Positions 61,701 to 63,029 of a stretch of 64,000 bases of DNA are shown here, piece after piece. Position 1 is the first letter of the stretch. Each line of letters begins with the position of its first letter. The notes under the pieces were generated by a model, which was not told the origin of the DNA, searched no databases, and saw only the letters and a list, made by a program, of their open reading frames with translations. This DNA comes from Clavelina lepadiformis (Eukaryota > Chordata > Ascidiacea > Aplousobranchia > Clavelinidae), in assembly GCF_947623445.1 (NCBI RefSeq), contig NC_135248.1, forward strand, positions 868,001 through 932,000, read 5' to 3'. The position numbers and the translations under genes are program-made.

Positions 61701-63029
61701 CTCAGGCAAAAGTGATCAAATAGAAAACGTTTTAAAGTGAGTGCTGATGGTACGAGGCTGAATTCTTTGCAATTTTTGGCTCAACCAGTTAATTTTGTGA
61801 AATAATGTTAATAATTTTTAAATATTTTGATATAAGGTGGTTACCCAGCTGCTAGGAAAGAAGTGATTCGGAATAAAATTCGAGCGATTGGCAAAATGGC
61901 TCGAGTTTTCTCCGTGTTAAGGTAAACTAACAACACGACTCATCATAAATTGCACCTGCCTCGATGAAAACTGTTTTAAACAGAAATTGTTTTGCCTCAT
62001 CAATATCCAATTGTACGAATGTAGAAAGTACATAAATAAAAATTTCGGAAAATTTTATGCCGAAAAGTTGCTAATTGCCCGGAGGTGTAAACTTGAAACT
62101 GAGTTGTGTTGCTTTGATTTATTTTTGAATTTGTATTTACTTCACATTGGTGCATTTACTTTTTCATGCTTTTGTTGCCCCACTGATAAATATGAGTAGT
62201 CAGCGAAGAGATGAAAAGGAAAAAGCTTCAGAGAGATGCACTCAGGCTAAAGATACGCGCAGTTGGAAAAATGGCCAAGTTTTTTGAAACTTTAAGGTAC
62301 TAGCTAGGCCACGGTTTCATGTCAGGAAATGGCCAAGCAAAAAATGGAACCAGTCAGTTGTACAGTCTATAATGTTTGCATTTGTTAACAAGAAAGCCAT
62401 TTGATTTACTGGTAGATTACGCATAACATGCTCCTAGATTCCCTAGAAATCATGTTTACTTTCTGGCGTGAAAAAGTTTCAGGTAATCAGTGTAAAGTTT
62501 GAAGTTGCCGACTTAAATTTTCTTGCAGAATATCACAGATGCAGCTCAAAGTGCTTGTGAGGCTCAAACAATGTATAGTTAAAATTAGTTATACCGTTAA
62601 ATGTCAATTATCGTTTCCGCTTAAAATTTACCAGTTTTCGTGTCTTTGCAGGAAAGAGAGTGAGACAGTGCTGGAACTGAAGGGTCTCACACCTTCTGGT
62701 ATGCTGCCTATGGGTGTTCTTTCAGGTGGAGCCCAGTCGCTACAGTCAGGTAAATTTTTGGGCTCTGCTGTTCTGCAACTGTCGCCTTAGTGCTGAGTAT
62801 GCATTTAAATTTGTATTTTTTTAACTTTCTAAATAAAGTAGCAATGTTATGGTGAGTTAACATCATATTTACTTGTTTAATTTCAGCTCTGGACGGAGTT
62901 GACGCCTCTCACGGCATCCACACATTTGAGGAGGCGAAAGGTCTGGATCGGGTCAACGAGAGAATGCCGCCTCGAAAAGACAAAGCGGAAAACTCCGCTT
63001 CTTCAAGCAAGTCCAACTCTGAGAACTAA
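46747..63029 (+). CDS. PPP3C (CanA): Calcineurin catalytic subunit A (Ca2+/calmodulin-dependent Ser/Thr phosphatase)
   Basis: Core exons: 46747-46807, 47719-47837, 48711-48792, 52973-53097, 53188-53299, 53546-53691, 53807-53946, 54275-54352, 54565-54659, 54785-54910, 54993-55070, then one of 61837-61921 or 62200-62296, then 62652-62749 and 62887-63029 (TAA). With the first alternative this gives 495 residues, near the 511-521 of human PPP3[22 protein letters not shown] starts the protein as in vertebrates. The metallophosphatase motifs GDIHGQ, GDYVDRG and RGNHE are intact. [20 protein letters not shown] is the calcineurin-B-binding helix. [20 protein letters not shown] is the calmodulin-binding helix, and [17 protein letters not shown] the autoinhibitory segment. 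Exon 3 ends at a GC donor. Three further phase-1 candidate cassette exons lie between 55070 and 61837. It acts in Ca2+ signalling in the cytosol, e.g. on NFAT. Confidence 0.97.
48793..52972 (+). other. 4.2-kb GC-AG intron of calcineurin, with a CpG-rich stretch
   Basis: Exon 3 must end at ...GTC ACA G (48792) to continue as V-CGDIHG, and the next bases are GCGAGA, so the intron starts with GC; it ends with CCAG. About 49960-52100 is visibly richer in CpG than its surroundings. At 51701-51865 it holds a 54-codon frame beginning [12 protein letters not shown] with no family I know. This could mark an internal promoter; no homology supports a gene. Confidence 0.6.
54080..54222 (-). mobile_element. 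Decayed hAT MITE in a calcineurin intron
   Basis: The right end, read inverted, is CAATGGTCTCCAACTTTTGC; the left end CGAAGATTTCCAACTGAACC is a worn match. The core has the TTGGGGCCC and GGGGTCTGC words common in such MITEs. Target duplications are not clear. Confidence 0.45.
56479..56490 (+). other. Candidate 12-nt cassette microexon of calcineurin
   Basis: GAACGGTTAATG lies between ctccccag and gtaaga. It enters and leaves at phase 1, so it would add Thr-Val-Asn and keep the frame (G|GA ACG GTT AAT G). Microexons this short need transcript proof. Confidence 0.4.
57048..57158 (+). other. Candidate 111-nt cassette exon of calcineurin
   Basis: Between ctcacag and gtaagg lies 111 nt open in the calcineurin frame, phase 1 to phase 1. 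It would insert 37 residues containing [20 protein letters not shown], a basic Ser/Arg-rich stretch, before the calmodulin-binding helix. The phase agreement and good splice sites are the only evidence. Confidence 0.4.
57833..57853 (+). other. Candidate 21-nt cassette microexon of calcineurin
   Basis: Between tgttgtag and gtaaga, phase 1 to phase 1, encoding G-QDGSGE. It is in frame with exons 55070 and 61837 or 62200. Confidence 0.45.
58408..60425 (+). mobile_element. CACTA-like DNA transposon, 2.0 kb, decayed
   Basis: It starts CACTGGTCAACAAATTTTTT and ends with the inverse, ...TTTTTGTTGACCAGTG, flanked by TTA on both sides (58405-58407, 60426-60428). CACTG ends with a 3-bp duplication suit the EnSpm/CACTA-Chapaev group. 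Inside, on the + strand, are remains of a protein family common in cnidarian and arthropod genomes. Visible parts are [20 protein letters not shown] with a Cys pair, [28 protein letters not shown] [34 protein letters not shown] (first acidic residue of a likely DDE core) and PPLHIKLG-like [18 protein letters not shown]. The frame is broken by a stop before TKGKRK (about 58937) and by shifts near 59370-59440 and 59790; the C-terminal part is missing. It is a fossil, not a host gene. Confidence 0.8.
61837..61921 (+). other. Calcineurin alternative exon: canonical calmodulin-binding helix
   Basis: 85 nt, phase 1 to phase 2, tataag acceptor and gtaaac donor. It encodes [20 protein letters not shown] and MARVFSVLR, almost identical to the vertebrate calmodulin-binding domain. 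Confidence 0.9.
62200..62296 (+). other. Calcineurin alternative exon: variant calmodulin-binding helix
   Basis: 97 nt after gagtag (an alternative acceptor gaag lies 9 bp further on, same frame), donor gtacta, phase 1 to phase 2. It encodes [20 protein letters not shown] and [13 protein letters not shown]. The KIRA-GKMA-F--LR core is kept, while the N-terminal half is replaced (KKLQRDALR for ARKEVIRN) and RVFSV becomes KFFET. It has the same entry and exit phases as 61837-61921, so one or the other should be used. Confidence 0.85.

What the first reader, a model, noticed from the sequence alone, without database searches (positions are those of the whole stretch)
61837..62296. Mutually exclusive exons swap the calmodulin-binding helix of calcineurin
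Two adjacent exons, 278 bp apart, both encode a calmodulin-binding helix with the KIRA-GKMA-F--LR core, and both run from phase 1 to phase 2. Using both brings an in-frame stop within the second exon; using neither shifts the frame. One exon is the deeply conserved helix, the other a more basic variant ([15 protein letters not shown]...KFFETLR). A choice of this kind would let one gene make phosphatases that differ in calmodulin affinity or Ca2+ threshold. I know of no such swap in vertebrate PPP3C genes.
Basis: partly seen in the sequence, partly recalled or inferred. Interest (0 to 1): 0.85.

Follow-up and report, generated by a model that had tools for sequence, protein, structure and literature searches.

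The report
Two alternative calmodulin-binding exons in calcineurin
In what is almost certainly a sea squirt, the gene for the calcium-activated phosphatase calcineurin carries two neighbouring versions of the small exon that binds its activator calmodulin, and the reading frame allows only one at a time, so one gene could make two differently controlled enzymes.

Summary
The window is almost certainly chromosome 9 of the ascidian Clavelina lepadiformis (nine chromosome lengths fit its genome paper). It holds a 14-exon piece of a calcineurin A gene, the only one found in the assembly. The exon for the calmodulin-binding helix occurs twice in tandem (A 61837-61921, B 62200-62296), both phase 1 to 2. 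A alone or B alone gives an open protein; both, or neither, gives a premature stop placed for nonsense-mediated decay. B is no chance match, and a neutrally drifting copy would score this well in 0.001% to 0.3% of simulations. The six hydrophobic positions that meet calmodulin are kept or conservatively changed. Two corrections: B is not more basic in net charge, and its splice sites score lowest in the gene. [quoted passage not shown] Closest known: C. elegans tax-6, whose exclusive exons swap the neighbouring linker, not the helix. No RNA or relatives could be checked, so exclusive use is inferred. New variant of a known kind.

The parts
47719..55070 (+). Calcineurin A constitutive exons upstream of the pair (10 exons: 47719-47837, 48711-48792, 52973-53097, 53188-53299, 53546-53691, 53807-53946, 54275-54352, 54565-54659, 54785-54910, 54993-55070); metallophosphatase domain and calcineurin-B-binding helix. 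The N-terminal first exon was not located.
   Evidence: tblastn with a recalled human PPP3CA; exon joints and open translation (the donor of 53188-53299 was corrected between them); Pfam PF00149 E=6.8e-41 on isoform B
61837..61921 (+). Exon A: conserved calmodulin-binding helix ([28 protein letters not shown]), phase 1 to 2, keeps the serine equivalent to human S411
   Evidence: joined to the next exon it matches PDB 1aui at E=5.1e-25
62200..62296 (+). Exon B: diverged tandem duplicate of exon A ([32 protein letters not shown]), phase 1 to 2, glutamate at the S411 position
   Evidence: joined to the start of the next exon it matches the same PDB chains at E=2.5e-06
62104..62199 (+). Acceptor region of exon B: 91-nt AG-free, T-rich stretch ending in a GAGTAG tandem acceptor, both choices in phase
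   Evidence: phase of the GAG choice read by eye
62292..62299 (+). Exon B donor: 8 bases TTAAGGTA identical to exon A's donor, divergent next to it on both sides; lowest donor score of the 13
62652..62749 (+). Shared downstream exon ([32 protein letters not shown]), start of linker LR2
62887..63029 (+). Last coding exon, autoinhibitory domain ([22 protein letters not shown]...) and stop codon

Best explanation
A calcineurin A gene whose calmodulin-binding exon was duplicated in tandem long ago, and whose two copies are now alternative, mutually exclusive exons. Exclusion is enforced after splicing by reading frame: taking both or neither gives a premature stop positioned for nonsense-mediated decay (the frames are shown; decay is inferred). 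Exon A gives the standard enzyme. Exon B, with weaker splice sites, is probably included in a restricted tissue or stage (inferred), and gives an enzyme that still binds calmodulin (inferred from conserved contact residues) but lacks the serine that CaM kinase II and PKC phosphorylate in mammals, with glutamate in its place, and has an altered flank at the neighbouring CaM kinase I-type site. The swap would therefore change how calcineurin is gated by CaM kinases, and perhaps its Ca2+/calmodulin threshold (inferred).
For: Shared phases and open single-exon isoforms; premature stops for both and for neither. Donor kept at the homologous base, TTAAGGTA 8 of 8. 8 of the 11 codons with unchanged residue differ only synonymously. 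Neutral drift from A ending in an open frame with a score of at least 60: 2 of 200,000 simulations if all 32 changes are on B, 602 of 200,000 if the 8 pure-synonymous ones are placed on A. Positions I396, I400, I403, M406, F410, L413 read L, I, V, M, F, L in B (their role from passages of PMC6151454 and PMC2671406). S411 phosphorylation by CaMKII and PKC is in passages of PMC3749960; the CaM kinase I consensus is in section 11 of PMC12503234. Only one calcineurin A gene was found in the assembly, so isoforms would come from splicing.
Against: No transcript evidence. Exon B has the lowest-scoring donor (3.9 bits by a recalled consensus; 85 of 903 other intronic GTs score at least as high) and the fewest pyrimidines before its acceptor (7 of 17). 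Identity of residues alone is not unusual for drift in the least favourable case (P 0.107). No relative was available to show that B is conserved. No docking-type RNA pairing could be tested without relatives; the 278-nt spacing is too long for steric exclusion (recalled rule), so frame is the only exclusion mechanism visible. S411 phosphorylation inactivates the mammalian enzyme but activates the S. pombe one, and filamentous fungi lack the serine, so the direction of an effect of glutamate is open.
Confidence: 0.7

Rival explanations
1. Exon B is a leftover of the duplication, not spliced in or only as noise, on its way to decay.
For: Lowest splice-site scores of the gene, no RNA support, no relatives checked; if the pure-synonymous changes are put on A, 11 of 23 identical residues in an open frame is not unusual for neutral drift (P 0.107).
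Against: No stop in B's frame, where neutral drift brings one in 47% or 57% of simulations; the score test gives 0.00001 to 0.003; kept or conservatively changed residues at the six calmodulin-meeting positions; donor retained at the homologous base.
Confidence: 0.13
2. Exon B is the first exon of a short transcript from an internal promoter. Its in-frame ATG (62211-62213) would start a 108-residue protein with calmodulin-binding helix plus autoinhibitory domain and no catalytic domain, a diffusible regulator.
For: In-frame ATG with an open frame to the natural stop, an in-frame stop just upstream (62193-62195, read), poor acceptor. Human CnA-alpha 16K is a precedent for a variant without catalytic domain, though it also lacks the calmodulin-binding domain (passage of PMC12503234).
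Against: There is an in-phase acceptor with a 91-nt AG-free T-rich stretch before it, which a first exon does not need; exon B descends from an internal exon. No promoter search was made.
Confidence: 0.09
3. Exon B acts mainly as a poison exon: inclusion with A lowers calcineurin level through nonsense-mediated decay, and the B-only protein is rare.
For: A plus B gives a stop 107 nt before the last junction.
Against: A poison exon has no reason to keep the calmodulin-meeting residues and matching phase; the residue constraint points to a protein role.
Confidence: 0.05
4. Alternative 3' ends: read-through of either donor ends the protein at once (A) or one codon (B) after the exon, giving an enzyme without the autoinhibitory domain.
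For: Stops directly after both donors; one AATAAA at 62035 between the exons.
Against: AATAAA is easily met by chance in AT-rich introns (not tested); nothing else supports it, and it does not explain exon B.
Confidence: 0.03

Closest known systems
C. elegans tax-6 mutually exclusive exons 13a / 13bc (PMC12503234)
   Same: Calcineurin A gene, two adjacent homologous exons used one at a time, in the regulatory region; tissue-biased there (neurons and intestine against muscle)
   Different: There the swap changes linker LR2 downstream of the calmodulin-binding domain, most visibly its length, and both exons keep the S443 site; here the calmodulin-binding helix itself is swapped, and the S411-equivalent serine is absent from B
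Mouse Ppp3cb/Ppp3cc exon 10a and Ppp3ca/Ppp3cb exon 13 (PMC5577920)
   Same: Alternative splicing beside the calmodulin-binding domain of calcineurin A, regulated in development
   Different: Small in-frame insertions before the calmodulin-binding domain or before the autoinhibitory domain, not a replacement of the helix
Plasma membrane Ca2+ pump (PMCA) splice site C
   Same: Splicing that changes an autoinhibitory calmodulin-binding tail (splice site C seen in passages of PMC5761718; its effect on that domain is recalled)
   Different: Unrelated protein; other exon choices
Mammalian and S. pombe calcineurin phosphorylated at the S411 position (PMC3749960)
   Same: The same residue position controls activity
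   Different: There by phosphorylation; here, if the reading is right, by exon choice

Membership tests
Calcineurin A (PPP3C) | Metallophosphatase domain, B-binding helix, calmodulin-binding helix and autoinhibitory domain in that order | tested here: met
   (the last for the phosphatase domain only; the other parts by alignment to recalled human PPP3CA)
Mutually exclusive exon pair from tandem duplication | Adjacent, homologous exons with the same phases | tested here: met
Mutually exclusive exon pair from tandem duplication | Each alone gives an open protein; both or neither does not | tested here: met
Mutually exclusive exon pair from tandem duplication | Transcripts contain one or the other and not both | not testable with these tools
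   no RNA data held; public RNA-seq run ERR10908613 is named in PMC10884593
Mutually exclusive exon pair from tandem duplication | Exon pair conserved in relatives | not testable with these tools
   no animal collection is held; scans of viral contigs and genome contigs gave no relative, which says nothing
Calcineurin calmodulin-binding helix (for exon B) | Hydrophobic residues at positions 396, 400, 403, 406, 410, 413 | tested here: met
   L, I, V, M, F, L in B; positions from passages; alignment
Calcineurin calmodulin-binding helix (for exon B) | Binds Ca2+/calmodulin | not testable with these tools
   needs a binding assay
Nematode tax-6 exon 13 pair | The swapped exons encode LR2 after the calmodulin-binding domain | tested here: not met
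   here the pair encodes the helix, and tblastn showed one match in the window for the LR2 exon 62652-62749

The most novel reading that the evidence does not exclude
The exon choice is a hard-wired phosphorylation switch: exon A makes a calcineurin that CaM kinases can regulate at S411, exon B one with a fixed glutamate there and an altered CaM kinase I flank (VLRKES to TLRKES), so that selected cells uncouple the phosphatase from its opposing kinase by splicing. The duplication would be old and shared by other tunicates.
Probability: 0.3. Interest if true: 0.75.

Novelty: new variant of a known kind. Interest (0 to 1): 0.55.

Why it matters
Exon A's stretch matches the recalled human calcineurin at 26 of 29 residues, so the helix is strongly conserved. 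In the papers seen here, splicing changes the linkers beside it, or drops it with the catalytic domain. A chordate that swaps the helix itself, in a gene found only once in its assembly, would show that the calmodulin gate can be exchanged, and gives a natural pair of helices for testing which residues set calmodulin response and CaM kinase control.

Tried and rejected
Chance similarity: rejected. A second calcineurin A gene as the source of isoforms: none found; the query from exons 54785-55070 matched this gene and one 122-bp copy of exon 54993-55070 with 49 bases of intron on another chromosome, and the nine other places matched by the phosphatase core are at 51-67% identity, as expected of PP1/PP2A-type relatives (that naming is by inference). 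U12-type or steric exclusion: not suggested by the donors (GTAAAC, GTACTA) or the 278-nt spacing (rules recalled). Docking/selector RNA pairing: of the 25 inverted repeats listed (of 43) one touches exon B (62267-62286 with 55694-55713, 20 nt, 80%) and is no better than many others in this AT-rich intron; not pursued. Splicing-factor motifs (GCATG once at 61623, 15 YGCY): no control, no conclusion. Exon B elsewhere: viral contigs and genome contigs are not animal collections; no relative found, which shows nothing. Rfam and tRNA scans of the window: nothing. Structure prediction was not run, because only the two isoforms could have been aligned. Helical hydrophobic moment: 195 of 5000 shuffles reach A's value and 397 of 5000 reach B's, so B's amphipathicity is not significant on its own. 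dN/dS between the exons: NG86 dN 0.46, dS not computable (saturated); the YN00 method failed.

Full report
What was checked. A tblastn of the window with a recalled human PPP3CA gave 20 matches at E<=10: seven scattered ones upstream at E 0.91 to 8, twelve that cover 13 calcineurin A exons in order on the + strand, and a second, weaker match for human residues 392-414 (E 0.009), which is exon B. From splice sites I built a gene piece of 14 exons including both A and B (one donor corrected from 53300 to 53299). The N-terminal first exon was not located (a narrow pattern search gave no candidate). Isoform A (474 residues) and isoform B (478 residues), counted from VPFPPS, are both open to the stop at 63029. 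A plus B stops in exon B and skipping both stops in the next exon, 107 and 69 nt before the last junction; by the usual 50-55-nt rule (recalled) both would be decay targets.

Where it comes from. The assembly's nine long contigs are 28.78, 26.53, 25.73, 25.07, 24.62, 20.77, 20.45, 19.51 and 15.73 Mb (C4). The table of the Clavelina lepadiformis genome paper lists 28.79, 26.54, 25.74, 25.07, 24.62, 20.77, 20.45, 19.51 and 15.73 Mb (passages of PMC10884593). The held copy is slightly smaller in all (209.06 Mb in 95 contigs against 210.1 Mb in 102 scaffolds), which I did not explain. The window is therefore almost certainly chromosome 9 of that light-bulb sea squirt, a tunicate. The rest of the paper was not read.

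More than chance. The ungapped score of B's helix against A's is 60; the best of 60 Markov-random intron sets is 30, and the real introns reach 20. The two exons differ at 32 of 69 aligned bases, by codon position 10, 8 and 14; 11 of 23 residues are identical, and in 8 of those 11 codons there is a synonymous difference. If B had drifted without constraint from A, an open frame with a score this high arises in 2 of 200,000 simulations with all changes on B, and in 602 of 200,000 when the 8 pure-synonymous changes are put on A, the case more favourable to drift of the two tried. The number of identical residues in an open frame is a weaker test (0.0016 and 0.107). The donor is kept at the homologous base, with 8 identical bases TTAAGGTA.

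Splice sites, told against the reading too. By a generic recalled donor matrix, A's donor scores 7.2 bits and B's 3.9, the lowest of 13; 85 of 903 other intronic GTs score at least 3.9, and one of 8.0 bits lies at 62483, downstream of B. Pyrimidines in the 17 bases before the acceptor triplet: 7 for B, 10 for A, 11-15 for the other 12. B's acceptor is a GAGTAG tandem preceded by 91 bases without AG and rich in T, as with a distant branch point; 8 of 675 AG-free runs in the gene's introns are 90 or longer, but the constitutive exon at 54565 has one of 97, so this is not specific. Weak sites fit either a regulated minor exon or a decaying one.

What the swap changes. In structures of calmodulin with this helix the residues named in the passages seen are Ile396, Ile400, Phe410 and Leu413 as anchors and Ile403 as mediator (PMC6151454), and Ile400 and Phe410 with Met406 at the edge of a pocket (PMC2671406). 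In B positions 396, 400, 403, 406, 410 and 413 are L, I, V, M, F and L. Of the four basic residues paired with calmodulin acids (Arg392, Lys393, Arg408, Arg414), B has Q, R, K and R. Calmodulin binding is thus likely to be kept, with uncertain strength. B changes Ser411 to Glu. According to passages of PMC3749960, CaM kinase II and PKC phosphorylate S411 of the mammalian enzyme and inactivate it; one passage says calmodulin binding is not significantly altered, another that affinity is slightly lower; in S. pombe phosphorylation of the same residue activates, and filamentous fungi lack the serine. B also changes V412 to T, so that the CaM kinase I consensus of hydrophobic-x-R-x-x-S-x-x-x-hydrophobic reported for tax-6 S443 (section 11 of PMC12503234), present as [10 protein letters not shown] with exon A, reads [10 protein letters not shown] with exon B. 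That B is uncoupled from CaM kinases is an inference from these facts. Residue numbers follow human PPP3CA as used in those papers; the transfer to this protein is by alignment.

One gene. In the assembly, the helix exons and the neighbouring catalytic exons were found as calcineurin A only at this locus, apart from a 122-bp fragment on contig C4, so helix diversity would come from splicing here. These searches score only the best candidates, and an exon diverged beyond recognition would be missed.

What is known. In the held library (PubMed Central, open licences) I searched calcineurin with mutually exclusive exons and calmodulin-binding (5 papers), calcineurin A with alternative splicing, calmodulin-binding domain and exon duplication, three of four terms (19, 17 listed), a six-term version (1), ascidian with calcineurin and exon (18), mutually exclusive exons with calmodulin-binding domain (5) and PPP3CA with mutually exclusive exons (7). 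For most I saw only the listing. No title or abstract start listed there reports a swap of the calmodulin-binding exon; papers outside the library and database gene models (for example any annotation of this species) were not seen. The closest is PMC12503234 (abstract, outline, passages, sections 6 and 11 seen): C. [quoted passage not shown] In mouse, exon 10a (Ppp3cb, Ppp3cc) lies just before the domain and exon 13 (Ppp3ca, Ppp3cb) just before the autoinhibitory domain (passages of PMC5577920).

Conclusion. A real tandem duplicate of the calmodulin-binding exon, apparently old (synonymous sites saturated) and constrained, with frame rules that permit only one copy per protein. Exclusive alternative splicing is the best explanation (0.7), not demonstrated. 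It is a new variant of a known kind, and the phosphosite exchange is its most testable feature.

Noticed in passing
window 48793-48794: The donor after exon 48711-48792 is GC, not GT (CACAG|GCGAGA), a GC-AG intron of about 4.2 kb.
   Followed up: no
L007:7836-7957 (contig C4 of the same assembly): A 122-bp copy, 93% identical, of 73 bases of calcineurin exon 54993-55070 with 49 bases of the following intron, on another chromosome: looks like a small DNA duplication, not a retrocopy.
   Followed up: partly
window 22466-25110 and 25223-28639: A 2.65-kb segment duplicated nearby at about 96.5% identity (22466-24068 with 25223-26818, 24069-25110 with 27601-28639), with about 0.8 kb extra in the second copy; the first copy includes an ORF with a Prefoldin_2 match (22576-22977, E=1.1e-16).
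   Followed up: partly
window 30652-32096 and 39222-40652: Repeat copies at 85-92% identity, one part itself doubled (39415-39692 with 39710-39988).
   Followed up: no
window 61923-61925 and 62301-62303: Reading past either helix exon's donor meets a stop at once (SVLR stop; FETLRY stop), which would give an enzyme without autoinhibitory domain.
   Followed up: no
contig C7 and many small contigs of the assembly: Ribosomal DNA copies, often about 7.9 kb apart (40 scored matches, of 104 candidates, to a short 18S stretch, all at 94% identity to a generic recalled sequence).
   Followed up: no
L007:137-5741: Weak hits repeated about every 1.1 kb, suggesting an array of tandem units.
   Followed up: no
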